A stretch of 64,000 bases of DNA from Leptotrichia sp. oral taxon 498 (GTDB lineage Bacteria > Fusobacteriota > Fusobacteriia > Fusobacteriales > Leptotrichiaceae), in the NCBI RefSeq assembly GCF_002240055.1, contig NZ_CP016753.1, positions 682,001-746,000 of the forward strand, written 5' to 3'. The position numbers and the translations under genes are program-made. Under the pieces are notes generated by a model. That model worked only from the letters and a program-made list of their open reading frames with translations. It had not been told where the DNA came from and did not search any database. Positions within the stretch are counted from its first letter, which is position 1. Each line of letters starts with the position of its first letter. Below, piece after piece: positions 19,761 through 54,524 of this stretch.

Positions 19761-19973
19761 TTATTTTAAAGGATCATAACCACCTTTATGAAAGGGATGA
19801 CACTTTAGTATTCTTTTTATGCTTAAGTAAGTTCCTTTTATCGCTCCATATTTTGTAATTGCCTGTCTTGAATATTCCGAACAAGTTGGATAGAATCTAC
19901 ATCTTTTTCCAAATATAGGAGAAATAATCTTTTGATAAATTTTTATTAGAAATAATAAAATTTTTTTTATCAT
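19761..19973 (-). CDS. yidD: Membrane protein insertion efficiency factor YidD
   Basis: A 70-residue protein of the YidD family, which assists YidC-dependent insertion. The hallmark [16 protein letters not shown] (about residues 24-39), the later [14 protein letters not shown] and a short amphipathic N-terminus ([17 protein letters not shown]) are all present. It overlaps rnpA by 4 bp (ATGA) and precedes yidC, the common order. Confidence 0.95.
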
Positions 19974-20296
19974 TTTATCACCTTGCTTAGGTCTTTTTCT
20001 ATATCTTTGTATTTTATATTTTTTAGATTATCTTTTAAAATTGATTTACCTACAAAAACATAGTCTGTATCTTTGTGAAATCTTTCTTTGTTTAGATTTA
20101 CAAATTCTTTAAATAGTCTTCTGATTCTATTTCTATAGACAGAGTTTCCTGTTTTTTTACTTGCTACAAATCCAAATCTTTGTTCTTTTTTGAAATTTTT
20201 TTTTATAAAAATAATAGCATACTTGGTATGCACTTTTTTTGATTTGTTATATATTATTGAAAAATCTTTTGTTTTTTTTATTTTATTGATATACAT
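19970..20296 (-). CDS. rnpA: Ribonuclease P protein component
   Basis: A 108-residue basic protein that binds the RNase P RNA and helps process tRNA 5' ends. The family's RNR motif appears as [19 protein letters not shown] (about residues 47-65). The N-terminal [16 protein letters not shown] is also typical. It overlaps yidD by 4 bp. A strong stem-loop with a T-tract separates it from rpmH. Confidence 0.94.
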
Positions 20297-20383: not shown

Positions 20384-20521
20384 TTATGCAGATAATTTAT
20401 TTCTTCCTTTTGCTCTTCTTCTTTTTAATACATTTCTTCCACTTTTATTTTGCATTCTTTTTCTAAAACCGTGATCTTTTTTTCTTTTTCTTTTATTTGG
20501 TTGATATGTTCTTTTTGTCAT
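20384..20521 (-). CDS. rpmH: 50S ribosomal protein L34
   Basis: A 45-residue, very basic protein, too short for a 60-residue ORF cut-off. It reads [19 protein letters not shown], continues through [22 protein letters not shown] and ends NKLSA, a textbook L34. AAAGGAAAAAAG precedes the ATG. It is first in the leftward rpmH-rnpA-yidD-yidC-jag-mnmE series next to oriC, the classic bacterial arrangement, and has a consensus-like promoter upstream. Confidence 0.97.
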
Positions 20522-20582
20522 TTTTTTCTTTTTTCCTTTCTTTTTTTCTTTTCTTTTCAATAATTTTTAGTATTTTATAAAT

Positions 20583-20611
20583 ATTATATACAAAATTTGA
20601 ATAAAAGTCAA
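20583..20611 (-). promoter_or_regulatory. rpmH promoter
   Basis: On the minus strand TTGACT (20611-20606), a 17-bp spacer and TATAAT (20588-20583) lie about 60 bp before rpmH, on the edge of the origin region. Confidence 0.75.
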
Positions 20612-20664
20612 GTAAAATCCCTTTACCAACTTATTAACTTTTTAGTTTTCCATAGTTTTCCACA

Positions 20665-20716
20665 ATCTATTATTATAATATATTATATATTATTATATAT
20701 ATATTATTATTATACA
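20665..20716. other. Probable DNA unwinding element
   Basis: About 50 bp made almost wholly of A and T, with runs of TATTA and TATATA repeats, bordered on the left by a DnaA box (20656-20664) and on the right by degenerate boxes. Among AT-rich tracts of oriC this is the most extreme. Other candidates are 22795-22860 and 23030-23100 in the right half. Confidence 0.55.
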
Positions 20717-21003
20717 ATGTGGAAATGTGGGAATACTGATGAATAAAGGATTTGCCAGAGAATAACATGTGGAAAACTTTTACCTAAATTGTGGAAAACT
20801 TTTTTCCACAAAGTTTCCCACATGTTTCCCACAATTTGATGTGGAAAACTAAAAAAATGTGGAAAAAATGTGGGAATCCAGTAAAATAGGCTATTCATTT
20901 TTATGTGGAAAACTTGTCAATTTTGAGCAAAAATAACAATAAACCAGGTAAATATAGTATCTAGTACCTGTGGAAAACTATGTGGAAAACTTTTTGCTAA
21001 ATC

Positions 21004-21032
21004 TTGATTATTTATTTTATATATGTTATATT
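21004..21032 (+). promoter_or_regulatory. Putative dnaA promoter
   Basis: TTGATT (21004-21009), a 17-bp spacer and TATATT (21027-21032) lie 270 bp before dnaA, with DnaA boxes on both sides (20981 and 21086). This suggests repression of dnaA by DnaA. Confidence 0.5.
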
Positions 21033-21301
21033 CATAATATAAAAATGTATCAAATTTGAAAAAAAGGGGAAAAAAATAAAAAAATTGTGGAAAACTCTCT
21101 AGTTTTTTTATTTATTTAGCAAAAAAATAAAAAATCTAAAAAATGTGGAAAACCAAATGTGGAAAACTCTAAAATTATTGTTTTATTAATGTGGAAAAGT
21201 AAAATTTTAATTTGGATAAAAATTAATAAAATCCTGAAAGAGAGTGACTTTTAAAGCTATTGATTCATTTGAAATAATTTAATTAAAAGGGAGATGAAAT
21301 T

Positions 21302-22675
21302 GTGCAGGAAGCTGAAAAATTATGGGAAAAGTTAAAAAAATTAGTGAAAAAAAGTGTGGAAGAAGTAATTTTTGAAACATTTTTTCAAAATGTCAAGGCT
21401 GTGGAAATTGTGAAGAATACGCTTCTGTTATCCTGTAACTCAAAAATTATTAAAAAAAATGTGGAAAACTACAGAATTGAAATGGAAGAAATCTTAGAAC
21501 TTGTAACTGATGAAAAAATGGAAATAAAAATAGAAATAAAGAAGCAAAAAAAGGAGATAAAACATCCTGAAATGAAGATTTTTACCACAAAGGATCTGGA
21601 AAAGCCTAAAATTAAAAACGAAAAAATGGCAAATACTGGTTTAAATCCAAAACATAGGCTAGACAACTTTGTAGTTGGTGAAAATAGTAGACTTGCATAT
21701 AATGCTTGCCTTGCTGTAGTAAAAAATCCCAAACCTGTTTACAATCCTCTTTTTATCTTTGGAAGTTCTGGACTTGGAAAAACTCATTTAATGCAAGCTG
21801 TAGGAAATGAAATTCTTAAAAAAAGTCCTGAAAAAAGAGTGTATTATTCTACATCCGAAGAATTTGCAAATGAATTTTTTAAAGTTTTAAACAGTGGGAG
21901 AATCCAGAATTTTAGGGATATATTTAGAAATTTAGACGTACTTTTGTTAGATGATATTCAATTTTTTGAAAAAGTTTTTGGACGTGGTGAAGGGACTGTG
22001 GAAGAAGAGTTTTTCCACACTTTTAACAAATTACAGGAATTGGGAAAACAAATTATTATGATAAGCGACAAATCTCCTAAAGAAATAAAGAATTTATCTA
22101 AAAGACTGGAATCTAGATTTTTATCTGGACTTACGGTAGAAATCCAGCGTCCTGGCTTTGAAACTAGAATGATGATTTTAAAAAATATTGCAAAAAGTCA
22201 AGACATAGAAATTGGCGATGATATTTTGGAATATATTTCAGATGCAGTCGTTTCAAATGTTAGAGAACTTGAGGGAATTTTGACGAATTTGAACGCTAGA
22301 GCAAAGCTATTAAATGAACCTATTACAATAGATCAGGTTCAGGAAATGCTTTCTCACAACATAAAAAAGGAGCGCTCAAAGATGACAGCTCAAAAAGTGA
22401 TAGAGATGATTTCATTGCATTATGGTGTAAGTGTTGACGATATGAAATCTAAAAAAAGGCAAAAAAAAATAGTAGAATCTCGACAAATTGCAATGTATAT
22501 ACTAAAGCATAATGTTGAGTTAGATTTAAGTTTAACCGCTATTGGCGGGCTTTTTGGAGGAAAGGACCACAGTACAGTAATAAGTAGCATAAGAAAAGTA
22601 GAAAAATCAAAAGAGGAAGATGACGTATTCAAAAAAGAAGTAGAGAATTTATATAAAAAGATATTTAAAATATAG
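21302..22675 (+). CDS. dnaA: Chromosomal replication initiator protein DnaA
   Basis: A 457-residue AAA+ initiator that binds DnaA boxes, melts the origin and loads helicase. Domain I begins KLWEKLKKLVKKSVEE. Walker A is GSSGLGKTHLM (154-164), Walker B LLLDDIQFF (about 216-224). Sensor and arginine-finger regions follow (SKRLESRFLSGL). Domain IV ends with DHSTVISSIRKVEKS, the DnaA signature that reads the box. The start is GTG at 21302, with GGGAG ten bases upstream. Two exact box sequences also occur within the coding region (21460, 22011). DnaA-box clusters lie on both sides of the gene. Confidence 0.98.
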   Translation: MQEAEKLWEKLKKLVKKSVEEVIFETFFQNVKAVEIVKNTLLLSCNSKIIKKNVENYRIEMEEILELVTDEKMEIKIEIKKQKKEIKHPEMKIFTTKDLEKPKIKNEKMANTGLNPKHRLDNFVVGENSRLAYNACLAVVKNPKPVYNPLFIFGSSGLGKTHLMQAVGNEILKKSPEKRVYYSTSEEFANEFFKVLNSGRIQNFRDIFRNLDVLLLDDIQFFEKVFGRGEGTVEEEFFHTFNKLQELGKQIIMISDKSPKEIKNLSKRLESRFLSGLTVEIQRPGFETRMMILKNIAKSQDIEIGDDILEYISDAVVSNVRELEGILTNLNARAKLLNEPITIDQVQEMLSHNIKKERSKMTAQKVIEMISLHYGVSVDDMKSKKRQKKIVESRQIAMYILKHNVELDLSLTAIGGLFGGKDHSTVISSIRKVEKSKEEDDVFKKEVENLYKKIFKI

Positions 22676-22682
22676 AATTTTT

Positions 22683-23287
22683 TTTTTATTTAGTGTGTGG
22701 AAAGAAATTCTAAAAATGTGGAAAACTATGTGGAAAACTTTTGAAAAATTTAGATAGTTTTCCACAATGTGGAAAAAGTTTTCCACAGGGAAAAAATTAT
22801 TTATAAAAAATTAAATAAAAATTATTATATATTAAAAAAAATAAAAAAATAATTTAAAATGTAAAAAATTTTTTGGGAAAAATGTGGAAAAAAGAGAAGT
22901 TTTCCACAATCTATATTTTTTATGAGAGTAAATAAATCCTTATTTTTAAACGGAAAGAAATAAAAATGTGGAAAACTATGTGGAAAACTGGATTTAAAAA
23001 ATGTGGAAAACTGACAAGATTTATTTTGAATGTTGAAAACTTATAAAAATTTAAATTATATATAAAAAGTATTATAAATTTAATTAAAAATAAAAAGAAA
23101 GAAATGAGTTTTCCACAAAATCCAAAAATAGTAAAATTTTAAAATAAATTTTTAGAATGTTTGAAATCCTCTAAAAATAGGTATAAAATGGTATTGTGGA
23201 AACTATGTGGAAAACTATGTGGAAAAAGTTTTCCACAATAAAATTGAGTTTTCCACAATTCAATTTTAAACATTAATATTATTAATG
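22683..23287. other. oriC: oriC, right half: DnaA-box cluster between dnaA and the S4-domain gene
   Basis: Fifteen exact TGTGGAAAA/TTTTCCACA 9-mers, counted by eye (starts 22717, 22729, 22758, 22768, 22779, 22883, 22900, 22967, 22979, 23002, 23109, 23206, 23218, 23229, 23249), and one near match at 23195. Tandem pairs with 12-bp spacing occur at 22717/22729, 22967/22979 and 23206/23218. Facing pairs make palindromes of the form TGTGGAAAAAGTTTTCCACA at 22768-22787 and 23218-23237. AT-rich stretches of 60-70 bp separate the groups. The perfect palindrome CATTAATATTATTAATG (23271-23287) closes the cluster. No gene is visible here. Confidence 0.88.
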
Positions 23288-23391: not shown

Positions 23392-23598
23392 ATGATAATA
23401 CATACAGAATTTATAAAGTTAGATCAGTTGTTAAAGTGGGCAAATTTAGTTGAATCGGGGGCTATGGCAAAAATGGTAATTTTAAATGGTGATGTGAAGG
23501 TAAATGGGGAAATTGAAACTAGACGAGGGAAAAAAATATATCCAGGCGATGTTGTGGAATTTAATGGAGAAAAAATTGTTATGGAAAAAGAAGTTTAA
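23392..23598 (+). CDS. S4-domain RNA-binding protein (YaaA/RlbA family)
   Basis: A 68-residue protein that is essentially one S4 domain: FIKLDQLLKWANLVESGAMAK is followed by ILNGDVKVNGEIETRRGKK and IYPGDVVEF. Such small proteins between dnaA/dnaN and recF (YaaA in Bacillus) bind RNA and are linked to ribosome assembly; the exact role is unsettled. GGGAGAAAAAA precedes the ATG. It lies 24 bp before recF. No dnaN gene lies between dnaA and recF here, unlike the common order. Confidence 0.88.
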   Translation: MIIHTEFIKLDQLLKWANLVESGAMAKMVILNGDVKVNGEIETRRGKKIYPGDVVEFNGEKIVMEKEV

Positions 23599-23622: not shown

Positions 23623-24711
23623 ATGTATTTAAGTCAAATAAATTTTAATAATTTTCGTTGCTTGAAAGATGATAAATTGCTGTTTAATAGGAATTTTAAC
23701 TTAATTTATGGGAAAAATGGGCAAGGAAAGACTTCTCTTATTGAAGCTGTTTATTTTCTCGCAACAGGAAAAAGTTTTAGGACAAAAAAAATTAAGGAAA
23801 TGAGAAAGTATAATGTCCATAGAACAATTGTCTTTGGAAAATTTGAGACAAATGATGGAAATAAAATTATTGCAATTGATGTCAACGAAGAAAAGAAGGA
23901 TTATTACATAAATAAAAGTAAAAGTAAATATATAGACTACATCGGAAACTTAAATGTAATTTCTTTTATTCCAGAAGATATTGAGCTAATTGTGGGAAAT
24001 CCTAATATCAGAAGAGGTTTTTTTAATTATGAAATTTCACAGGCGAGAAAAGATTACTTGAAGTCGATTGTAAATTTTGAAAAAATACTAAAAGTCAGAA
24101 ACAAACTTATAAAAGAAAATAAAACTTGTTGCGAAATTTATGAGATTTACAACAAAAAATTTATTGAAGAGGGTGTGAATATTATAGTTCACAGAAGAGA
24201 ATTTATACAAAAGATATCGGTTTTGCTAAATTTTAATTACCAGAAACTGTTTGACAAAAAAGCTAAGTTAAAGTTAAGATATGACTGTTTTTTGGGAGAT
24301 GTAGAAAAAAAAAGTAAGTCTGAATTAGTGGAAAAATTTGAAGAGCAGTGTTTAAAAAAAATGGAGAGGGAAAATTTTTTGGGATACAGTTTGCTGGGAC
24401 CGCAAAAAGATGATTTCGTCTTTGAGTTAAATGGAAAAAATGCAAAATCTTATTCTTCTCAAGGAGAAAAAAAATCAATAATATTTTCACTAAAAATTTC
24501 TGAGATTGACATTTTGATGGCGGAAAAAAATGAATATCCGATTTTTATTATGGACGATATCTCTTCATATTTTGACGAAATTAGAAAAAATAGCATTTTG
24601 GATTATTTCAAAAATAAAAAAATTCAGTGTTTTATAACTTCGACGCAAGATTTGAAAATTTTTGGAAAAAAATTTATTGTTGACGGTGGAAAAACAGAAG
24701 TGGGGGAATAA
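23623..24711 (+). CDS. recF: DNA replication and repair protein RecF
   Basis: A 362-residue SMC-like ATPase that helps load RecA at gaps with RecO and RecR. The N-terminus MYLSQINFNNFRCLKD is typical. Walker A is GKNGQGKT (30-37). The ABC signature is SYSSQGEKKSIIFSLKI, and Walker B is PIFIMDDISSYFDE near residue 308. Length fits the family. It is followed after 2 bp by the DciA-like gene, so the two are translationally close. Confidence 0.95.
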   Translation: MYLSQINFNNFRCLKDDKLLFNRNFNLIYGKNGQGKTSLIEAVYFLATGKSFRTKKIKEMRKYNVHRTIVFGKFETNDGNKIIAIDVNEEKKDYYINKSKSKYIDYIGNLNVISFIPEDIELIVGNPNIRRGFFNYEISQARKDYLKSIVNFEKILKVRNKLIKENKTCCEIYEIYNKKFIEEGVNIIVHRREFIQKISVLLNFNYQKLFDKKAKLKLRYDCFLGDVEKKSKSELVEKFEEQCLKKMERENFLGYSLLGPQKDDFVFELNGKNAKSYSSQGEKKSIIFSLKISEIDILMAEKNEYPIFIMDDISSYFDEIRKNSILDYFKNKKIQCFITSTQDLKIFGKKFIVDGGKTEVGE

Positions 24712-24713
24712 AA

Positions 24714-25787
24714 ATGGAAGATAAAGTCAATAAATTAGGTAATTTAGCTAAATATATATATGATAAGAAAAAAATTTCTTTTTTTAATAATGAAAAATAT
24801 ATTTTGGAGAAAATAAAAAAAAATTGGGAAATATTTGTTGGTGGTCCAATTTTTGAAAGGTCTGAGCCAAAAAGTCTGTTTCAAAAAATTTTGACGGTAA
24901 ATTTGACAGATGCGACGGTTTATCACACATTTCTTCTGCATAAAAATGTGGTAAAGGACAGAATTAATAAATTTTTGGGTGAAGATGTCGTAGGAAATAT
25001 TGAGATTCATAAAGTAAACTATAAAATAAAAAGAGAAATTTTAGATGAATTAATTGAAAATGAAGAAAATTTTGGAACTTTAAAAGTTGGAGAGATGTTA
25101 AGAGAACACGAAGTTACTAAAAGAAGATGGGGAAATAATAAAAAAAAAGTTTTTACTAAAAAATTTACAAAAAAAGGTAAAATTGATATAAATAAAGTTA
25201 TTTTGCCAAAAGAAATAATCGACAAAATTCATAAAGCTATGACTGAAAATCCAAATCGCGATAAAAAACTTTCAGAAAGATTGGAAAGAATTTTGATAAA
25301 GATGGAAAAGCGGAGAATTTGTCTAAAAGAGCTTGGATATGTGGAGTGCAAAATGTGTAAAAGTCTATTTAAGCCAATGAAAGATGAAAAAATTTGTTTT
25401 GAGTGCGAAATGGCAAAGAAAAATAAAATTTTTGAGAGTATGATGAGACTTATTCAAGAAAAACCATTTACTGGGGAAAGACAGGCACTAAAAATTATAA
25501 AGACGGATAAAAAGACATATTACAAGGCACGGGAAGTTTTGGCACAGCAGATTTATAATGAACTTTTATACTTTTGTATTGAAAAAAATAAAGAAATTGG
25601 CAATAATGAAGAATATAGCTTTGAAATACGAAACGAAGCTAAAAAAGAAATGGAAGATATGATAAAAAATTATATTGATTGCAAAATTGGAAGTGACAAT
25701 AAAGAAGTTTTTAAAATTGAGCGAAAAAGAATTTTGTCAAAATTAAAAAAAGATGTGGAATTCAGAATGAAATACAGATACAGATAA
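24714..25787 (+). CDS. DciA-like (DUF721) protein with a C-terminal zinc-ribbon extension
   Basis: A 357-residue protein. Residues about 25-110 resemble DUF721/DciA, the ancestral bacterial helicase loader: ILEKIKKNWEIFVGG, then SLFQKILTVNLTDATVYH and KDRINKFLGEDVVGNIEIH. The rest is a long basic region not found in short DciA proteins. It has a probable zinc ribbon, CKMCKSLF followed by CFECEMAKK (two CxxC pairs about 15 residues apart), then a helical tail. Its place 2 bp after recF, near dnaA, matches the DUF721 gene of Actinobacteria. No dnaC or dnaI gene is in the window. Domain assignment is by eye; the helicase-loading role is inferred. Confidence 0.65.
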   Translation: MEDKVNKLGNLAKYIYDKKKISFFNNEKYILEKIKKNWEIFVGGPIFERSEPKSLFQKILTVNLTDATVYHTFLLHKNVVKDRINKFLGEDVVGNIEIHKVNYKIKREILDELIENEENFGTLKVGEMLREHEVTKRRWGNNKKKVFTKKFTKKGKIDINKVILPKEIIDKIHKAMTENPNRDKKLSERLERILIKMEKRRICLKELGYVECKMCKSLFKPMKDEKICFECEMAKKNKIFESMMRLIQEKPFTGERQALKIIKTDKKTYYKAREVLAQQIYNELLYFCIEKNKEIGNNEEYSFEIRNEAKKEMEDMIKNYIDCKIGSDNKEVFKIERKRILSKLKKDVEFRMKYRYR

Positions 25788-46648: not shown

Positions 46649-48232
46649 ATGAAAAAATTATTGTTGACATTGGCAATGTCGCTATTTTTACTATCTTGTG
46701 GAAATGGCGGGAATGACCAAAACACATTTTCTGTAAATATTGTAACGGAGCCAAGTTCGATTGACCCGCAAATCACAACTGACATTCCTGGAGGAACAGT
46801 CGATGAACTTATTTTAGAAGGATTGCTTCGAAAAGATAAAAATGGAAAATCAGTTGCAGGACTTGCAAAATCGTGGGAAAAATCAAAAGATGGATTAAAA
46901 TGGACATTTCACTTAAGAGATGGAATAAAATGGTCAAACGGAGATCCAGTAACCGCAAAAGACTTTAAAGCAGGATGGCTTCGTGCGCTAAATCCAGCAA
47001 CAGCGGCAAGTAACGCAAATATGTTATTTGTAATAAAAAATGGAGAAAAATATAACGCTAAAAAAGCGAGTGCCGAAGAAGTTGGAATTAAAGTGGTTGA
47101 TGACAAAACTTTGGAAGTTACATTGGAAGCACCAGTTTCATATTTTGATGATTTGGTAACATTTAAAGCATATATGCCTCTAAACGAAAAATATTATAAT
47201 CAAGTTAAAGACAAATATTTTTCAGAAGCTAAATATACAATAGCTGTAGGTCCTTACACTTTGGACGACTGGACACATAATTCAGAATTGAGATTGAAAA
47301 AGAATCCTAATTACTGGGATGCGGCAAATGTTAAGACAGAAAATGTAGTTTTAAAAATGATTGACAGTAATTCGTCTGTAAATGCTTTTAAAAATGATGA
47401 AGTTGATGTTACACCAGTTACATTTGAACAAGCTAAAGAATTTAATGGAAAACCTGAATTAGTGACAGCTAAAGATGGAGGAATTTATTATTTGTTATTT
47501 AATGTAAACGATCCAGCTTACAAAAATGTGAAAATCAGAAAAGCTATTTCAATGGCAATCAATAAAAATGATTTGTTGACTAAAGCACTTTCAAATTCTG
47601 AAAAAGCGACTAAGACTTTCACACCGCAAGGAATTGGACTTAACGGACTAAAAGGTGATTTTGCCAAAGAAGTTCCAACAGATCAGCCAAAATATGATGT
47701 GGCAGAAGCTAAAAAATTGTTAGCTGAAGGAATGAAAGAAGCAGGGATTTCTAAATTGCCAAATATAAAAATATTATTTAATGACAGTGGAAGCAGAAAA
47801 GCGATTGTGGAATATATTCAAGATAATTTAAAAACTAATTTAGGCGTTCAAGTTGATGCGGAAATGGTTACAAGTAAAGAGCGTGTAAACCGTACAAAAG
47901 AAAATAACTTTAACATTGCTCTAATGAACTGGACTGGAGATTTCTTAGATCCAATCACATATTTAGATTTATTTGAAAGTACAAATGCAAATAATCGTGG
48001 AAAATTTGTAAATTCAAGATATGACCAGCTTGTAAAAACTGTAAAATCGACAGACAATCCACAGACAAGAGTACCAGCGATGATAGAAATGGAAAAAATA
48101 ATTTCACAGGAAGCTCCAGTTGTAATTTTATTCCAAAAACAAAAACAATATTTAGTTAATCCAAGAGTTACTAATTTAGGATTTGTTTCAATTGGTGGAG
48201 AGTTCTTTATAAGAGATGTTGTATTAAAATAA
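46649..48232 (+). CDS. Oligopeptide-binding lipoprotein OppA, copy 2
   Basis: A 527-residue paralogue of the preceding protein, same fold and length. The signal KKLLLTLAMSLFLLSCGNGG has the lipidated Cys at 17. GIKWSNGDPVTAKDFKAGW and KIRKAISMAINKNDLL match the family's signatures. NSSVNAFKNDEVDVTPVTFEQAKEF aligns with the first copy's NGSLNAFKNDEIDSTNIS region. It is last in the opp operon, and its stop is 3 bp before the TTTTAAC flank of the miniature element at 48243. Confidence 0.92.
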   Translation: MKKLLLTLAMSLFLLSCGNGGNDQNTFSVNIVTEPSSIDPQITTDIPGGTVDELILEGLLRKDKNGKSVAGLAKSWEKSKDGLKWTFHLRDGIKWSNGDPVTAKDFKAGWLRALNPATAASNANMLFVIKNGEKYNAKKASAEEVGIKVVDDKTLEVTLEAPVSYFDDLVTFKAYMPLNEKYYNQVKDKYFSEAKYTIAVGPYTLDDWTHNSELRLKKNPNYWDAANVKTENVVLKMIDSNSSVNAFKNDEVDVTPVTFEQAKEFNGKPELVTAKDGGIYYLLFNVNDPAYKNVKIRKAISMAINKNDLLTKALSNSEKATKTFTPQGIGLNGLKGDFAKEVPTDQPKYDVAEAKKLLAEGMKEAGISKLPNIKILFNDSGSRKAIVEYIQDNLKTNLGVQVDAEMVTSKERVNRTKENNFNIALMNWTGDFLDPITYLDLFESTNANNRGKFVNSRYDQLVKTVKSTDNPQTRVPAMIEMEKIISQEAPVVILFQKQKQYLVNPRVTNLGFVSIGGEFFIRDVVLK

Positions 48233-48300
48233 GTGTTTTAACAATATTTAGCAAGAAGTCTCCTTCTTCTATAAGTGGGAGATGAATTGCAGAATATAGC

Positions 48301-48329
48301 TTGAAATAACAGCTCTTATATGGTATAAT
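48301..48329 (+). promoter_or_regulatory. Internal promoter of miniature element copy 2
   Basis: TTGAAA (48301-48306), a 17-bp spacer ending TGG, and TATAAT (48324-48329): a near-consensus, TG-extended promoter inside a non-coding element, directed at the conserved stem beginning at 48341. The predicted start is near 48336. Confidence 0.6.
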
Positions 48330-48335
48330 ATTCAT

Positions 48336-48437
48336 AGTCAGGGCAGGGACTGTCCGAAGAGCTTGGTAAATATATTTGGCTAGCAAAAACAGATACTTCC
48401 CAAGAAGCTCCCTCTTCTACAAGTGGGAGTAGTTCAC
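48336..48437 (+). ncRNA. Candidate omega-RNA-like structured RNA, copy 2
   Basis: Downstream of the internal promoter are a stem GGGCAG-gga-CTGTCC (48341-48355), the conserved stretch CGAAGAGCTTGGTAAATATA, the segment CAGATACTTCCCAAGAAG and the terminal hairpin ending at 48437. Against copy 1 the stem shows T-A changed to C-G and G-C to G-U, so pairing is kept. A TnpB-type guide would be the following bases, AAGATTGAAATACATCGTGT in this copy. A TnpB partner would have to be encoded elsewhere. Confidence 0.42.
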
Positions 48438-48481
48438 AAGATTGAAATACATCGTGTCAAAATAAAGAATCTAAAATAAAT

Positions 48482-48514
48482 AAAAAAGTCGGGAAAAATT
48501 TCTCGGCTTTTTTA
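48482..48514. terminator. Bidirectional terminator between the opp operon and cobK
   Basis: AAAAAAGTCGGGAAA and TTTCTCGGCTTTTTT form a stem with A- and T-runs at either side, between the convergent opp and cob operons. Confidence 0.7.
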
Positions 48515-49279
48515 AATATGATTTATAAGTTTATCAATGTCAGAATAAACATTTCTGTAGTTCACAAAAGGTCTTTTTAGCACTAAAACAACTGTTCCAA
48601 ATTCTTTACAGGCATCAATTTTCTCTTTTTCTCCGCCAGTTTTTCCACTCTCTTTTGTAATCAAAAAATCAATTTTAAAACTTTTAAGCATAGCTAAATT
48701 CAAATTTTTGTCAACAGGCCCTTGAATTGCAATTATATTTTTAGGTAAATATCCAAGATTTTCCGCCTTTTGAATGGAAGCAGTTGTTGGAAGTATCCGC
48801 ACAAAAAGATTATTTTTTTTACTCATAGCTTTTATTTCTTCTAGATTATTTGATCCAAGTGTACTCAAAATGTTTTTATTTTCATATTTTGAGATAAATT
48901 CATTCATTTGACTCAAAGTTTCAAATTTAAAGACGTTTTCATCTCCATAATCAAGCATTTCCCGCTCAAATCTCACATATTTAGTCCCAAGTTTTTTTGT
49001 AACTTTCAAAATGGAACGGCTCACATTTTCAGCATATGGATGACTTGCGTCAACGATGAGATTTATATTTTTTTTGGTGATGACTTTTTCCATTTGTTCT
49101 TCGTCCAATTTTTTACAAATAACTTGAATATTTTTTTTGCTATCCAAAGTATATTTTTTCAAAAGTTCTCCGCCGTAGGAAGTGGCAGTACTAACAAGAA
49201 TATCCTTTTTATTTTTCACACTGACAAGTTTTTCCAAAATATCTCTTCCGTCTTTCGTTCCGCCAATTATCCAAATCAT
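48512..49279 (-). CDS. cobK: Precorrin-6A (cobalt-precorrin-6A) reductase CobK/CbiJ
   Basis: A 255-residue NAD(P)H-dependent reductase of the corrin ring in cobalamin synthesis. It starts IWIIGGTKDGRDILEKL, the family's nucleotide loop. LIVDASHPYAENVS (near residue 73) and RFEREMLDYGD near 101 are conserved, and TKESGKTGGEKEKIDAC near the end is the CobK C-terminal signature. It is the last gene of the leftward gmhB-hemL-cobT-cobC-cobK operon. The rest of the corrin pathway is not in the window. Confidence 0.88.
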   Translation of the reverse strand: MIWIIGGTKDGRDILEKLVSVKNKKDILVSTATSYGGELLKKYTLDSKKNIQVICKKLDEEQMEKVITKKNINLIVDASHPYAENVSRSILKVTKKLGTKYVRFEREMLDYGDENVFKFETLSQMNEFISKYENKNILSTLGSNNLEEIKAMSKKNNLFVRILPTTASIQKAENLGYLPKNIIAIQGPVDKNLNLAMLKSFKIDFLITKESGKTGGEKEKIDACKEFGTVVLVLKRPFVNYRNVYSDIDKLINHI

Positions 49280-49332
49280 ATTTCTCTCTTTCCAAAATTT
49301 TTTATTTATTTTACTATAATTCTTAAATAATT

Positions 49333-49947
49333 CTATTGAAAAAATTTACCATTTTCAAAATAAAATATTCGACATTCTCCATTTCCAATAAGTTTTCTCT
49401 CATCTAAATCGTCTGCTTCCCTGTTTTCAATATAGTTAAAGAAAAGCTCTAAAACAGTTCCGTGTGTGACAATCAAAATATTTCCGCTTTCGTGAGCTTT
49501 CACGATTTTATCAAGTCCTTGTAAAAATCTAGCTAGTCCATCTTTCAACTCTTCTCCGCCAACATTTGTCGCACAGTAATTTTTTACATCATAAAAATAG
49601 TTGTGAGCTTCCTGCGGAGAAAAATCAAAAATCTCGATAAAAGTCATCCCTTGCCATTTCCCAAAATAAATTTCATTAAGCTCGGGAATTTCTTGAAGTT
49701 CTGGTTTCTCATTTTTATTATCTTCCAAAATAATTTTTGCAGTTTCAACCGTTCTTCCCATTTGACTAGTATAAACAGCATTAAATTTAACATCTTCCAA
49801 TTCTTTCGCAGTTTTCTTAACTTTTTCAATCCCTTCTTCTGTAAGTGGCGAATTCATCTGTCCCTGAAATTTTTCCAGGACATTCCATTCAGTTTGTCCA
49901 TGTCTTACAATGTATAATTTTAATTTATTTTCTTTAATTTCTTTCAT
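49333..49947 (-). CDS. cobC: Histidine phosphatase family protein, probable alpha-ribazole phosphatase
   Basis: A 204-residue phosphoglycerate mutase-like phosphatase. LYIVRHGQTEWNVLEKFQGQ (near residues 12-31) holds the phosphorylated His in RHG. YTSQMGRTVETAKII is the second motif, and ILIVTHGTVLELFF holds the second catalytic His. In the cobalamin operon, next to cobT, alpha-ribazole-5'-phosphate phosphatase is the likely activity, since that enzyme acts on the product of CobT. Sequence alone cannot separate it from GpmB-like enzymes. The 179-bp gap upstream is nearly all poly-T/poly-A tracts. Confidence 0.75.
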   Translation of the reverse strand: MKEIKENKLKLYIVRHGQTEWNVLEKFQGQMNSPLTEEGIEKVKKTAKELEDVKFNAVYTSQMGRTVETAKIILEDNKNEKPELQEIPELNEIYFGKWQGMTFIEIFDFSPQEAHNYFYDVKNYCATNVGGEELKDGLARFLQGLDKIVKAHESGNILIVTHGTVLELFFNYIENREADDLDERKLIGNGECRIFYFENGKFFQ

Positions 49948-50126
49948 TTTTTATTTTTTTTTCCTTTCTCTTTTTCTTTCGTTTCTTTAATTTCTTTAAG
50001 TTATTTCTTTTCTTTCTTTTATATATATTTTTTTAAAATTTATTTCTTTTTTTTTTTAAATTTTAATTTTTAAATTTTAAATTCTTATATTTTATTTTTT
50101 TAATTAAGTCAATTGAGTTAAGTTAA

Positions 50127-51176
50127 TCAAACATCTGGATAAGTTCTCACATCTTCAGTTATTCTACAAGCCGCTTCTATGATTGGAAACATCATAATAG
50201 CTCCAGTTCCTTCGCCAAGCTTCATATTCATCAGAAGTGGCGCGGTTAAATTAAGCTCACTCATAATATATTTCATCCCTGGCTCACAGCTCAAGTGCGA
50301 ACCAATCATATAGTCACGAGCATTCGGACATAATTTTTGTGCAATTAATGCCGCAACAGCTGAGATAAAGCCGTCTATGACAACAGGAACGCCATTTTTA
50401 GCGCAACCTAAAAAAGTTCCAGACATTCCTGCAATATCCAGTCCGCCAACTTTGGAAAGCATGTCAATCGGATCTTTTTTATCAATTTTTTTAGTCGAAA
50501 TCGCTCTTTTTATAACTTCTTTTTTATGTTCCAAAGTCTTTTTATTAATTCCGCTTCCAAATCCAACAATATCGTCCAGCGGCAAATCTGAAAAAACTTT
50601 TAAAATAGCGCCGCTCGTCGAAGTATTTCCAATTCCCATTTCTCCAGTCGCAAAAAGATTATAACCTTTTTTCACAAATTCGTCCACCATTTTTATTCCA
50701 ATTTCAATGGCGGATACAGCGGTTTCATAACTCATAGCAGCTTCGTCTGCAATATTATTCGTCCCAAATGGCATAAGTTTTTTGTCAATAATTCCTTTAA
50801 AATCAAATTTTTTTGAATTGCTTGAACTTTCATCAATTCCCAAGTCGACTACTTTTACATCAGCACCAAAACTTTTTGCCAGAGAATTTATCGAAGAAGT
50901 GCCGTTTAACATCGCTTCTACGACATATTGAGTTATAACTCTTTTGGATTTGCTTACTTTTTCACGCTCTACACCATTGTCAGCCGCCATAACGAGTACC
51001 ATTTTTTTCTTAGGTTGATAATTTTGCTGCATTCCTTCTAGTTTTATTGCCAAATCTTCAATAATTCCAAGTCCTTTCGGAGTTTTTAGCAAAGAATCAA
51101 GTTTTTTTTCTTTTTCTTCCATCCGCTGTCTATTCGCCATTTCAATTTGAGTCAAAGTTTTTTTCAAAATCTCCAT
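50127..51176 (-). CDS. cobT: Nicotinate-nucleotide--dimethylbenzimidazole phosphoribosyltransferase
   Basis: A 349-residue enzyme that activates the lower ligand base of cobalamin by transfer to nicotinate mononucleotide. LLKTPKGLGIIEDLAIKLEG near residue 30 is the family's base-binding region. VLVMAADNGVEREKVS, NLFATGEMGIGNTSTSGAIL, and the C-terminal FPIIEAACRITEDVRTY with the catalytic Glu are all present. Length matches CobT/CobU (about 350). It lies between hemL and cobC. Confidence 0.94.
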   Translation of the reverse strand: MEILKKTLTQIEMANRQRMEEKEKKLDSLLKTPKGLGIIEDLAIKLEGMQQNYQPKKKMVLVMAADNGVEREKVSKSKRVITQYVVEAMLNGTSSINSLAKSFGADVKVVDLGIDESSSNSKKFDFKGIIDKKLMPFGTNNIADEAAMSYETAVSAIEIGIKMVDEFVKKGYNLFATGEMGIGNTSTSGAILKVFSDLPLDDIVGFGSGINKKTLEHKKEVIKRAISTKKIDKKDPIDMLSKVGGLDIAGMSGTFLGCAKNGVPVVIDGFISAVAALIAQKLCPNARDYMIGSHLSCEPGMKYIMSELNLTAPLLMNMKLGEGTGAIMMFPIIEAACRITEDVRTYPDV

Positions 51177-51197
51177 TTTTCTCCTAAATTTTTACTT

Positions 51198-52496
51198 TTA
51201 CAAACTATTTTTTATTTTCTCAAATGCTTTTTTCAACGCAAAATAAAATTTTTCATAATCTTCGTCGGAATGAACATAGGAAATGAAATGAGCTTCATAT
51301 TTTGACGGCGGCACAATAATCCCATTTTCTAACATTGTGTCAAAATAAATGGCAAACATTTCATCACTTGTGTCAATTGCATCTTCCAGATTTTCTATTT
51401 TATCCTTTGCAAAAAAGATTGTAAATAAGCTATTAACATAGTTCACAGTCGCAGGAATTTCATATTTTTGAATTAAGTTTTCTATTTTAGAAACCAGTTC
51501 TTTCGTTCTTTTCTCCAAAGTCTTGTAAATTTCAGGATTTTCTTTCAAAATGGAAATCGTTTTAATTCCAGCGGCGACAGAAACTGGATTTCCAGAAAGA
51601 GTTCCAGCGTGATAAACATTTCCAACTGGTGAAATCGAATCCATAATTTCTTTTTTTCCACCGAATGCACCAACTGGATATCCGCCGCCAATGATTTTCC
51701 CAAGAGTGACCAAATCTGGCTGTATTCCAAACACTTCACAAGCGCCACCAAGCGAAATTCTAAATCCTGTAATAACTTCGTCAAAAATTAGAACAATATT
51801 TTTTTTACGAGTAATTTCTCGCAAAAATTCCAAGAATTCTTTTGAAGTCTCAATAACTCCCATATTTGCTGGAATAGGTTCAACAATGACACAGGCGATG
51901 TCATTTTCATCTTCAATAATTTTGTTCGTTTTTTCAAAATCTCCAAATGGAGCAGTTATTGTGTCTTTGGTTACGGCTTCAGTAATTCCGTTGCTGTCCT
52001 GATGCTCAAAAGTAAGAAGTCCAGACCCCGCTTTTACAAGCAGTGAATCCGAATGCCCGTGATAACATCCTTCAAATTTCAAAATTTTATTCTTTTTTGT
52101 AAATGCCCTGGCAAGTCTCACAGCCGCCATCGTAGCTTCAGTCCCAGAAGTTGTAAGCCTAATTTTTTCAATCGCAGGAAAACATTCTTTTACAAGTTCT
52201 GCCAATACAACTTCTTTTTTTGTCGGAAGCCCAAAAGATGTCCCTTTTTCCATCTCGGATTTCACAACTTCAAGAACTTCAGGGTAATTATGCCCAAGTA
52301 TCATAGGTCCCCAAGATCCAATCATATCAATATATTCATTCCCATCTTCATCAAAAAGTTTGCTTCCTTTTGCACTTTCAATAAAAATGGGATAGTCTTT
52401 TTTTACGGACTGAAAAGCTCTGACTGGACTATTTACACCACCTGGAATAGATTTTTTTGCTTCTTCAAAAATTTCTTTAGATTTATTTGTATTCAT
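51198..52496 (-). CDS. hemL: Glutamate-1-semialdehyde 2,1-aminomutase
   Basis: A 432-residue PLP enzyme that converts glutamate-1-semialdehyde to 5-aminolevulinate, the first tetrapyrrole intermediate. SIPGGVNSPVRAFQSV (near residue 16) is the family start. RLTTSGTEATMAAVRLARAFT, CYHGHSDSLLVKAGSG and the PLP-binding Lys in VTLGKIIGGGYPVGAFGG (near 264) are clear. VYHAGTLSGNPVSVAAG follows. The gene overlaps gmhB by 4 bp (ATGA). In this operon it would feed corrin synthesis. No hemA or hemB is in the window. Confidence 0.96.
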   Translation of the reverse strand: MNTNKSKEIFEEAKKSIPGGVNSPVRAFQSVKKDYPIFIESAKGSKLFDEDGNEYIDMIGSWGPMILGHNYPEVLEVVKSEMEKGTSFGLPTKKEVVLAELVKECFPAIEKIRLTTSGTEATMAAVRLARAFTKKNKILKFEGCYHGHSDSLLVKAGSGLLTFEHQDSNGITEAVTKDTITAPFGDFEKTNKIIEDENDIACVIVEPIPANMGVIETSKEFLEFLREITRKKNIVLIFDEVITGFRISLGGACEVFGIQPDLVTLGKIIGGGYPVGAFGGKKEIMDSISPVGNVYHAGTLSGNPVSVAAGIKTISILKENPEIYKTLEKRTKELVSKIENLIQKYEIPATVNYVNSLFTIFFAKDKIENLEDAIDTSDEMFAIYFDTMLENGIIVPPSKYEAHFISYVHSDEDYEKFYFALKKAFEKIKNSL

Positions 52497-53062
52497 TGAT
52501 TTTCTCCTTCTTCAATTAAGTTGGCAAATTCCAAAATGTCGTTCACAACAATGGAATCTAAGCCATTTTCTTTAAGTTTTGAAATGTTTTTAACTCCATA
52601 TCCAGTTTTGACGAGGACGGTTTTCATTCCTAGTTTTTTTGCAGGAATCAAATCTGTCACTCTGTCGCCAATCATAAAAGAGTTTTTTTCATCTATTTCA
52701 AATTCTTTTATTGCCAACTCAAAATTTTTCGTATTTGGTTTCCGACATTCGCAATTTTTTTTGTATTTCCCAATCCCATCAGGATGATGCGGACAAAAAT
52801 ACGACTTTTCAATTTTAATTCCCTTTTTTCGCAAATCTTCTTCAATAAATTTTTGCAATTTAAAATAATCTTCTTCGCTGTAAAATCCTTTAGCAATCCC
52901 AGCCTGATTGGTAATAATGACAAATTTATAACCCAAATCTCTCAATTTTGCTAGCCCAGAGACAACATTTTTTTCATATTCAAATTCTTCAATTCTATGC
53001 AAATAATTTTTTTCAACATTAATCACGCCATCTCTGTCGAGCAAAATAAATTTATTTTTCAT
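52493..53062 (-). CDS. gmhB: D-glycero-D-manno-heptose 1,7-bisphosphate 7-phosphatase GmhB
   Basis: A 189-residue HAD phosphatase of ADP-heptose synthesis. FILLDRDGVINVEKN (5-19) has the DxD nucleophile pair, and FVIITNQAGIAKGFYSEED is the second motif. CPHHPDGIGKYKKNCECRKPNT in outline (Cys-x-His ... Cys-x-Cys) is the zinc loop typical of GmhB. MIGDRVTDLIPAKKLGM holds the final Asp. It is the first gene of a cobalamin operon, which is unexpected, but fits the heptosyltransferase genes elsewhere in the window. Confidence 0.93.
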   Translation of the reverse strand: MKNKFILLDRDGVINVEKNYLHRIEEFEYEKNVVSGLAKLRDLGYKFVIITNQAGIAKGFYSEEDYFKLQKFIEEDLRKKGIKIEKSYFCPHHPDGIGKYKKNCECRKPNTKNFELAIKEFEIDEKNSFMIGDRVTDLIPAKKLGMKTVLVKTGYGVKNISKLKENGLDSIVVNDILEFANLIEEGENQ

Positions 53063-53160
53063 ATTTTTTTTAAAACTCCTTCCTTTTCACAAACAATTAT
53101 GCTTACACAAATTATATAGAAATTACTTCCAAAAATCAATAAATTCTTTTTACATTTCAG

Positions 53161-53189
53161 TTGAATTATGCTCTAATTTGTGCTATACT
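53161..53189 (+). promoter_or_regulatory. Promoter of the polysaccharide operon
   Basis: TTGAAT (53161-53166), a 17-bp spacer and TATACT (53184-53189), 40 bp before the sugar transferase gene. Confidence 0.65.
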
Positions 53190-53228
53190 TTTTACTGAGA
53201 AACTAAGAAGTTTTTAAGGGAAAAAGAT

Positions 53229-54524
53229 ATGAAAATAAAAAAAATCGTTATAATTCGAATAATATATATTATTGTTCTGTATTTAATTTACAATATACTG
53301 TTAAATCAATACGATTATGTAACAAGATATTTGACAAATTTTATCTTTTTGGTTTTCATATTTATAAAATTTATTTTTGGACAATTGGATTTTTATGCTG
53401 AAAGATTTAGATTAAAAAATATCTTTGTAAATTTTTCAATTGACGCAATTTTTGCGTTTATGCTTTTTATTTTTTTAAAAAAAGTTGAGATATTTTATGT
53501 TTTCAGTGCAGTTTTCTTCTTTCAAATAATATTTCGGAAAATAATATCTTCGATTTACATGAAAAAGAAAAATGTCCTGATTTTTGGATCAAATCATATT
53601 GAAAACAATATTCAAGAAGATATTATAGCTAGCTTAGATTACAACTACATCGGTTATATTTCCGACAATAAAAGCCGTGCAACAAAATATTTAGTTGGAA
53701 ATTATGCTGAAATGGAAAAGATAATAAAAGAAAAAAAAATTGATCTTCTTGTAATTGTAAAAGATATGAAAAGTCCAAGTTTTAAAAAGTATTTAAAGCG
53801 ACTTTTTGATTTGAAAATAAATGGATTAAAAGTTTTGAGCTATGAAATATTTAATGAAGAAATTCAAAAAAAAATAGATGCAAGTAAAATTGACGAAGAG
53901 TGGTTATTGCAGTCTAATGGTTTTGATATTTTAAACGATGGAATGCAAAAAAATATGAAACGTGGAGTAGATTTAGTCATAGCTTCAACACTAATGATTT
54001 TGCTCTCGCCAATGGCACTAATCGTGGCAATTTTAATAAAGTTGGAATCAAAAGGTCCAGTTATTTTTAAACAGGTGAGAATTGGAGAAAATATGGTTCC
54101 ATTTAAAGTTTATAAATTTAGAAGCATGAAAATACACGATCCCCAAAAATATTCAAAATATGCACAGGACAACGACAATAGAGTGACAAAAATCGGAAAC
54201 TTTATAAGAAAGACAAGAATTGATGAATTGCCACAACTTTTCTGTATTTTAAAAGGAACGATGAGTTTTGTGGGTCCAAGACCAGAATGGGATATCTTAG
54301 CCAAAGAGTATGAAAAGCAAATACCATACTACAATTTAAGACACATGATAAAACCTGGACTTACAGGCTGGGCGCAAGTGATGTATCCTTACGGCGAAAA
54401 TATTGAAGATACAAAAAGAAAGTTAGAATACGATTTATACTATTTAAAACATCAGGATTTAATTTTAGATGTTTTGATAATCTTTAAAACAGTCAAAGTG
54501 ATACTATTTGGAAAGGGAAAATAA
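53229..54524 (+). CDS. Initiating sugar transferase (polyprenyl glycosylphosphotransferase, WcaJ/WbaP family)
   Basis: A 431-residue membrane enzyme that starts a surface glycan by moving a sugar-1-phosphate onto undecaprenyl phosphate. About four N-terminal helices (to residue 115) are followed by a nucleotide-binding-like middle domain (VLIFGSNHIENNIQEDI). A further hydrophobic helix near 240-270 leads to the catalytic domain: VIFKQVRIGENMVPFKVYKFRSM, then TRIDELPQLFCILKGTMSFVGPRPEW, with the conserved Asp-Glu in RIDELPQ, and KPGLTGWAQV. AAGGGAAAAAG precedes the ATG. It is first in the operon. The sugar is unknown. Confidence 0.9.
   Translation: MKIKKIVIIRIIYIIVLYLIYNILLNQYDYVTRYLTNFIFLVFIFIKFIFGQLDFYAERFRLKNIFVNFSIDAIFAFMLFIFLKKVEIFYVFSAVFFFQIIFRKIISSIYMKKKNVLIFGSNHIENNIQEDIIASLDYNYIGYISDNKSRATKYLVGNYAEMEKIIKEKKIDLLVIVKDMKSPSFKKYLKRLFDLKINGLKVLSYEIFNEEIQKKIDASKIDEEWLLQSNGFDILNDGMQKNMKRGVDLVIASTLMILLSPMALIVAILIKLESKGPVIFKQVRIGENMVPFKVYKFRSMKIHDPQKYSKYAQDNDNRVTKIGNFIRKTRIDELPQLFCILKGTMSFVGPRPEWDILAKEYEKQIPYYNLRHMIKPGLTGWAQVMYPYGENIEDTKRKLEYDLYYLKHQDLILDVLIIFKTVKVILFGKGK

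What the first reader, a model, noticed from the sequence alone, without database searches (positions are those of the whole stretch)
20641..23287. Bipartite oriC with an unusually dense array of DnaA boxes
I count 13 exact 9-mers left and 15 right of dnaA, with two more inside the gene. Typical origins have about 5 to 15. The box is TTTTCCACA rather than TTATCCACA in nearly all cases, so the DnaA preference in this lineage may have shifted.
Basis: partly seen in the sequence, partly recalled or inferred. Interest (0 to 1): 0.5.

Follow-up and report, generated by a model that had tools for sequence, protein, structure and literature searches.

The report
Replication origin crowded with DnaA boxes
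This is the place where a Leptotrichia-type bacterium starts copying its chromosome; it is built like other known origins but carries far more binding sites for the starter protein DnaA than comparable origins, and comparing it with relatives suggests that the sister family, to which Fusobacterium belongs, has replaced DnaA by a plasmid-type protein.

Summary
In detail: 30 exact TTTTCCACA (13 left of dnaA, 2 inside, 15 right), no TTATCCACA. GC skew flips here and roughly opposite on the 2.15-Mb chromosome: this is oriC. The right array occurs in 14 of 14 genomes of Leptotrichia plus a sister genus and in 0 of 15 other relatives with dnaA, on one branch. Boxes are better conserved than flanks. 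Sixty control dnaA loci hold at most 10 boxes; seven origins of this group hold 18-39. A shifted DnaA preference is not supported: TTTTCCACA fits TTWTNCACA, occurs in outgroups and is the cyanobacterial box. Its genome-wide excess is coding composition.

Side result: family f4 (Fusobacteriaceae) has no DnaA in 61 of 61 genomes; 59 of 61 encode a plasmid-type Rep, found beside rnpA in the 12 origin loci read and at the skew minimum in the two closed genomes checked.

The parts
20656..21198 (.). Left DnaA-box module: 13 exact TTTTCCACA starting at 20656(+), 20768(-), 20790(-), 20802(+), 20840(-), 20858(-), 20904(-), 20969(-), 20981(-), 21086(-), 21144(-), 21158(-), 21190(-)
   Evidence: conservation per box: 20656, 20768 and 20981 are a box in 13 of 13 other genomes, 21144-21190 in only 1-2 of 13
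20668..20714 (.). 47-bp run of A/T only, candidate DNA unwinding element
   Evidence: its end ATATATTATTATTAT is identical in all 14 aligned origins
20702..20713 (+). TATTATTATTAT, trio-like repeat of the unwinding core; outgroups G024, G025, G097 have TAGTAGTAG and a G cluster at this place
   Evidence: rule (.A.){3,} from PMC8287927 (passage)
20718..20726 (-). Imperfect DnaA box ATTTCCACA next to the trio-like repeat
   Evidence: TGTGGAAAT in 14 of 14 origins of the group
20726..20734 (-). Second imperfect box ATTCCCACA, overlapping the first by one base
   Evidence: outgroups have TGTTNAAAT-like sequence at the same offset
21004..21032 (+). Conserved promoter-like TTGATT-17-TATATT, presumed dnaA promoter; tandem boxes 20969 and 20981 lie just upstream
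   Evidence: promoter activity inferred
21302..22675 (+). dnaA, 457 aa, GTG start
   Evidence: PF00308 8.2e-56, PF08299 1.7e-23; TIGR00362 452.5 bits, cut-off 343.9
21460..21468 (-). Box inside dnaA (codons for N-V-E-N)
22011..22019 (+). Box inside dnaA (EFFHTF); a box here in 12 of 14 origins of the group, while other genera mostly use a spelling that is no box
22717..23257 (.). Right DnaA-box module: 15 exact TTTTCCACA starting at 22717(-), 22729(-), 22758(+), 22768(-), 22779(+), 22883(-), 22900(+), 22967(-), 22979(-), 23002(-), 23109(+), 23206(-), 23218(-), 23229(+), 23249(+)
   Evidence: present in 14 of 14 of the group and 0 of 15 other DnaA-bearing relatives
22791..22860 (.). 70-bp run of A/T only in the right module, possible second melting region
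23392..23598 (+). S4-domain protein (YaaA-like; that name is recalled) between oriC and recF
   Evidence: PF13275 1.5e-30
23623..24711 (+). recF (named from its sequence and place; no family scan run)
24714..25787 (+). DciA (helicase operator domain, residues 25-98) with a long C-terminal extension
   Evidence: PF05258 8.3e-8
19970..20296 (-). rnpA, left flank of the origin

Best explanation
This is the single chromosomal origin, oriC, in two parts around dnaA. DnaA binds the strong TTTTCCACA boxes of the left module and is guided onto the weak boxes at 20718-20734; from there a DnaA filament runs onto the adjacent trio-like repeat and opens the A/T run 20668-20714, where helicase is loaded with the help of DciA, encoded 2 kb downstream. 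The tandem boxes at 20969 and 20981 lie just upstream of the presumed dnaA promoter and let DnaA repress its own gene. The right array is a younger module, gained in the ancestor of Leptotrichia and a sister genus, that holds a store of DnaA next to the origin, touching the left part by looping and titrating DnaA so that initiation fires sharply. Shown here: origin position by skew, box counts, conservation, spacing, one-branch distribution of the right array, the conserved core. Inferred: unwinding site, autorepression, looping, titration.
For: GC-skew sign changes here and roughly opposite. Box columns conserved above non-box columns: 0.758 vs 0.492 left (0 of 660 circular shifts as high) and 0.799 vs 0.547 right (0 of 639). 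The distance from the first + box to the first - box, which bracket the A/T run, is 110-112 bp in 14 of 14 origins although the distance to dnaA varies by about 275 bp. Trio-like repeat and first weak box are kept in 14 of 14; class and order outgroups G024, G025, G097 show TAGTAGTAG, a G cluster and a box at the same place. Spacing: 5 of 26 within-array neighbour distances are exactly 12 bp (P 0.001 under random placement) and 8 of 26 are 10-12 bp (P 0.0009) (the simulated spans were about 10 bp too long). Right array on one branch of the DnaA tree, support 100/99. Outside the origin only 1 of 47 boxes in 461 kb is intergenic.
Against: No binding, footprint or melting data exist here for this organism. 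The repeat is TAT, not the TAG/TAA of the described motif, and A/T-rich DNA satisfies the loose rule easily. The right module also has a 70-bp A/T run, so melting there is not excluded. Many boxes are kept in few relatives (20802 in 6 of 13; 21144, 21158, 22883 in 1 of 13), so not every box can be essential. The skew minimum coincides with a change of gene direction.
Confidence: 0.72

Rival explanations
1. As in Bacillus subtilis and Helicobacter pylori, unwinding happens in the part downstream of dnaA (right module), and the left module is the helper.
For: In both model bipartite origins only one half unwinds; in B. subtilis it lies between dnaA and dnaN (PMC6669920, passages), in H. pylori it is oriC2 (PMC4285127, passage). 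The right module has the longest A/T run, 70 bp at 22791-22860.
Against: The right module is absent from 15 of 15 other DnaA-bearing relatives, which must still unwind. The strictly conserved core and the cumulative skew minimum (20501-20750) are on the left.
Confidence: 0.12
2. The array is mainly a DnaA sink (datA-like titration or inactivation site) that happens to sit at the origin; most boxes take no part in opening DNA.
For: Many boxes are lineage-specific; the number varies from 10 to 38 exact boxes within the group; extra intergenic boxes cluster at the origin only.
Against: Phased 12-bp tandem pairs and conserved spacing suggest cooperative complexes. A datA-like site also needs an IHF site, which was not sought.
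Confidence: 0.3
3. The boxes are a by-product of base composition or of local duplication without selection.
For: Genome-wide TTTTCCACA counts in Leptotrichia exceed the reversed control 1.8- to 4-fold; short direct repeats surround some boxes.
Against: The genome-wide excess is coding: 46 of 47 sampled boxes are in reading frames and 40 of 46 in one frame (GTG-GAA-AAN), and the maximal-order expectation is 50.4 for 47 seen. Boxes at the origin are intergenic and better conserved than their flanks.
Confidence: 0.03
4. DnaA of this lineage changed its preferred box from TTATCCACA to TTTTCCACA.
For: 30:0 here, 38:1 in G006, 31:1 in G012, against mixtures elsewhere in the group. Their DnaA shares a Ser where other Leptotrichia have Thr, two residues before a conserved Gln of domain IV.
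Against: The Arg that corresponds to E. coli R399 and the DHxT core of domain IV are kept, and DHST is shared with genera that lack the array (residue numbers recalled). TTTTCCACA is the commonest of the two forms in most DnaA-bearing relatives. The E. coli consensus allows both.
Confidence: 0.15

Closest known systems
Bipartite oriC of Bacillus subtilis with its basal unwinding system
   Same: DnaA-box clusters on both sides of dnaA; weak tandem boxes next to a trinucleotide repeat and A/T-rich DNA (PMC6669920, PMC8287927; passages)
   Different: Proposed unwinding core lies upstream of dnaA, repeat is TAT-type, dnaN is not the next gene, and there are 30 strong boxes
Bipartite oriC of Helicobacter pylori (oriC1 - dnaA - oriC2)
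   Same: Spacer is dnaA; one half holds the unwinding element (PMC4285127, passages)
   Different: Box is TTTTCCACA, not TCATTCACA; core proposed on the upstream side
Cyanobacterial oriC with TTTTCCACA boxes
   Same: Same 9-mer; binding by DnaA domain IV shown in vitro (PMC4674748, passages)
   Different: 1-12 boxes there, often next to dnaN (same passages); here 30 around dnaA
Streptomyces coelicolor oriC
   Same: High box number, 19, the top of the range in the review (PMC4285127, passage)
   Different: Continuous origin, box TTGTCCACA (same paper)

Membership tests
Bacterial chromosomal origin (oriC) | Sits at a GC-skew sign change with a second one roughly opposite | tested here: met
Bacterial chromosomal origin (oriC) | Cluster of DnaA boxes beyond chance | tested here: met
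Bacterial chromosomal origin (oriC) | Initiation of replication in the cell | not testable with these tools
   needs marker-frequency or minichromosome assay
Bipartite oriC | Two box clusters separated by a gene, usually dnaA | tested here: met
   13 left, 15 right of dnaA
Bipartite oriC | One half holds the unwinding element and both are needed | not testable with these tools
   left half proposed from conservation; need for both not tested
Basal unwinding system (box - spacer - DnaA-trio) | Box within 16 bp of at least three N-A-N triplets | tested here: met
   box 20718-20726 (one mismatch), repeat 20702-20713, 4-bp gap; rule
Basal unwinding system (box - spacer - DnaA-trio) | Consensus 3'-GAT-5' trios with G-rich spacer (the commonest form, not obligatory) | tested here: not met
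   TAT repeats and no G cluster here; canonical form in outgroups G024, G025, G097
datA-like titration site | Box cluster plus IHF site, lowers DnaA-ATP | not tested
   no IHF site search was made
Canonical DnaA | Full-length DnaA model above cut-off | tested here: met
   TIGR00362 452.5 bits, cut-off 343.9

The most novel reading that the evidence does not exclude
The origin slot beside rnpA has changed hands inside one bacterial order. Leptotrichia kept DnaA and added a second array that makes its origin the densest TTTTCCACA origin seen here. Its sister family (f4, Fusobacteriaceae) lost DnaA altogether and starts its chromosome with a plasmid-type Rep protein in dnaA's place, captured once from a megaplasmid-like replicon. 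If true, a whole family of bacteria that includes Fusobacterium runs its chromosome on a plasmid-type initiator.
Probability: 0.75. Interest if true: 0.85.

Novelty: new variant of a known kind. Interest (0 to 1): 0.5.

Why it matters
The window gives a compact, well-conserved natural series (10 to 38 exact boxes in one group, 0 to 4 in sister genera) for asking what extra DnaA boxes do, with an unwinding core that can be followed from canonical TAGTAGTAG outgroups to the TAT form here. It also marks the DnaA side of an apparent initiator replacement in the same order: if Fusobacteriaceae really start replication with a plasmid-type Rep, the rule that free-living bacteria rely on DnaA has a family-wide exception, directly testable in Fusobacterium nucleatum laboratory strains.

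Tried and rejected
Genome-wide box enrichment as a DnaA titration system: rejected. Counts in Leptotrichia looked high (175-267 against controls of 67-106), but sampled boxes outside the origin are 46 of 47 coding and 40 of these 46 in one frame.

Right array as ancestral: rejected, absent from 15 of 15 other relatives with dnaA; a relaxed box TTWTCMACA gives these 0-7 on the left and 0-2 on the right. Three of these (G088, G092, G095) were read with only 396, 327 and 65 bases upstream, so their left counts are lower bounds.

[quoted passage not shown] Iterons near rep: none convincing with a crude 10-mer count. Relatives of Rep in viral contigs: 124 pattern matches, none confirmed. Solved structures: only weak hits, best E 0.02, to winged-helix proteins; not used as evidence.

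Rows dropped: in the 60-locus control, 15 of 75 loci (L201-L275) were left out for short flanks, and the five Fusobacteriota loci L196-L200 were not used. Controls were scored for TTWTNCACA; phyla with other boxes (TTGTCCACA and so on) are undercounted by it, but the commonest single NNNNNCACA 9-mer reached 7 at most. Of the 14 origins of the group, 7 were scored in the same way in that call.

No structure prediction was made: the sequences worth folding came from the fetch from genomes, which is not among the sources that structure prediction names. IHF sites and RNA families were not searched.

Full report
WHAT IS THERE. TTTTCCACA occurs 38 times in the window (1.98 expected), 30 of them between 20656 and 23257: 13 left of dnaA, 2 inside, 15 right. 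TTATCCACA is absent from the region. dnaA is 21302-22675, a normal DnaA by its ATPase and DNA-binding domains. Left of it rnpA and a yidC-like gene point away; right of it lie an S4-domain gene, recF and DciA (recF and yidC named by eye).

IT IS THE ORIGIN. The window is 682001-746000 of a single 2,152,181-bp contig. GC skew is negative up to about 20 kb of the window and positive after it; the cumulative minimum is reached in 20501-20750, on the left module. Sampled stretches show the reverse change between 1.74 and 1.94 Mb, roughly opposite. A local exception, negative skew at 48-54 kb of the window, does not disturb this.

THE CONSERVED CORE IS ON THE LEFT. I compared 29 loci with a dnaA gene from the same phylum. 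More distant relatives G024, G025 and G097 have TAGTAGTAG, a G cluster and TGTGGAA at this place, which is the box - spacer - DnaA-trio order of the described basal unwinding system (PMC8287927 and PMC6669920, passages seen). G040 has a shorter TAG/TAT version without a perfect box. For G013, G092 and G095 my pattern found no such repeat (G092 and G095 truncated upstream). The best reading is an unwinding core of the known kind, upstream of dnaA, with TAT instead of TAG triplets and weak boxes that an exact search does not see. A promoter-like TTGATT-17-TATATT at 21004-21032 is kept as well, with the tandem boxes 20969/20981 just upstream; the box at 20981 is kept in 13 of 13 relatives and that at 20969 in 11 of 13.

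THE DENSE ARRAY IS SPECIFIC TO ONE GROUP. Exact boxes left/inside/right: 13/2/15 here, 17/2/19 in G006, 12/3/16 in G012, 10 to 26 in total in the other ten Leptotrichia, and 9/3/14 in G022. All 15 other relatives with dnaA have 0-4 left, 0-1 inside and 0 right (three of them with truncated upstream sequence). A relaxed box gives these 0-7 on the left. On the DnaA tree the 14 lie on one side of one branch (100/99), which fits one gain of the right array, though it does not prove it. Against 60 dnaA loci of other phyla (median 3, maximum 10 TTWTNCACA within 1.5 kb) the seven origins of the group scored the same way hold 18-39. A review gives 5 to 19 boxes for studied origins (PMC4285127, passage).

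THE BOXES ARE UNDER SELECTION, BUT NOT ALL ALIKE. Box columns are more conserved than the rest on both sides (0.758 vs 0.492; 0.799 vs 0.547; no circular shift as high in 660 and 639). Some boxes are near-universal (20656, 20768, 20981 in 13 of 13; 20790, 20858, 20969, 22758, 23249 in 11 of 13), others exist in 1-4 of 13. Twelve-bp steps between neighbours are over-represented (5 of 26 against 0.8 expected; 8 of 26 against 2.4 for 10-12 bp), as expected of neighbouring DnaA molecules. Eleven of 13 left boxes and 9 of 15 right boxes point the same way. The extended box is AG-TTTTCCACA-T (23, 23 and 18 of 30). The in-gene site EFFHTF is a box in 12 of 14 origins of the group, while other genera mostly use a spelling that is none.

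NO SHIFT OF PREFERENCE, NO GENOME-WIDE SYSTEM. TTTTCCACA lies within the E. coli consensus (PMC5835720, passages) and is the cyanobacterial box (PMC6323995 and PMC4674748, passages). Outgroups carry it. The TTATCCACA form has nearly vanished only in the clade G000/G006/G012. Real box drift is seen elsewhere: G015 uses TTTTCAACA (5 left) and its DnaA reads DHAT in domain IV. Genome-wide counts look enriched but follow from Val-Glu-Lys/Asn codons: outside the origin 46 of 47 sampled boxes are coding, 40 in one frame.

MECHANISM. DnaA fills the strong boxes, is passed to the weak boxes at 20718-20734, and extends over the trio-like repeat, opening 20668-20714; DciA then helps load helicase. The right array probably stores and positions DnaA for this step or buffers it. 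Counts, positions, conservation and spacing are shown; binding, melting, looping, autorepression and titration are inferred.

THE SIDE RESULT. Searching the phylum for DnaA, 32 of 33 genomes of this family and the single genomes of f2, f3, f5 and f6 have it at E of 4e-45 or better (the miss, G089, is 82% complete), but 0 of 61 genomes of family f4 do; their only hits, best 3.4e-12, are short ATPase frames of the IstB/DnaC kind (that reading is mine) (PF08299 0 of 14). In the 12 f4 origin loci where I located it (11, G054), a 560-640 aa protein stands next to rnpA where dnaA would be; recF follows it in 3 of the 5 loci listed (G069, G030, G054) and not in G033 and G080. Of the 59, G077, G082 and G086 show only partial or second-type copies; the misses are G066 and G072. 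It matches genes at the start of the Ilyobacter and Haliovirga megaplasmid records (36-39% identity). Pfam RPA, replication initiator protein A, is matched by 3 of 8 at best 3.4e-6, about at the cut-off, and by an Ilyobacter plasmid copy at 1.9e-4. NCBIfam has no match for the 4 scanned. In the two closed f4 genomes sampled the skew flips between rep and rnpA (G030 at about 279 kb; G054 at about 611-612 kb). Thirty-six chromosomal copies form one side of one branch (100/100) with 15 plasmid or second copies on the other (several 'plasmid' labels are second copies on unnamed contigs, and branches are long). I therefore think that DnaA was replaced once by a plasmid-type initiator. A parallel exists: a dnaA deletion in Synechococcus elongatus moved initiation to an integrated plasmid (PMC7198777, passage). 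In the held library I found no paper that says this of Fusobacteriaceae (searches; listings and the passages cited); one paper places the F. [quoted passage not shown] Subscription papers and preprints were not searched.

VERDICT. The window feature is a real origin of a known kind with an extraordinary number of boxes: a new variant of a known kind. Its comparison opened a more surprising question next door.

Noticed in passing
L172:3942-5729 (+), L169:3599-5338 (+), L170:7563-9308 (-), L168 and other f4 loci: Family f4 (Fusobacteriaceae) has no DnaA in 61 of 61 genomes; 59 of 61 encode a plasmid-type, RPA-like Rep, which in the origin loci examined stands beside rnpA where dnaA would be and, in the two closed genomes checked, at the GC-skew minimum..
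   Followed up: partly
L097/L098 (G015), also G019 and G040: Sister genera use TTTTCAACA beside or instead of TTTTCCACA; in G015 (0 TTTTCCACA, 5 TTTTCAACA upstream) DnaA domain IV reads DHAT rather than DHST/DHTT. A possible natural case of box and DnaA changing together.
   Followed up: partly
window 24714-25787: DciA here is 357 aa with the DciA domain only at residues 25-98; the C-terminal extension holds CxxC pairs that look like a zinc site.
   Followed up: no
window 48001-54000: GC and AT skew turn negative for about 6 kb inside the positive arm, which may mark an inversion or an acquired segment.
   Followed up: no
window 20969-21032: Tandem 12-bp spaced boxes directly upstream of a strongly conserved promoter-like sequence, a likely dnaA autoregulation site.
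   Followed up: partly
NZ_CP084075.1 (L327): A 2.1-Mb Fusobacterium vincentii record listed as plasmid carries the f4-type Rep; by size it may be a mislabelled chromosome.
   Followed up: no
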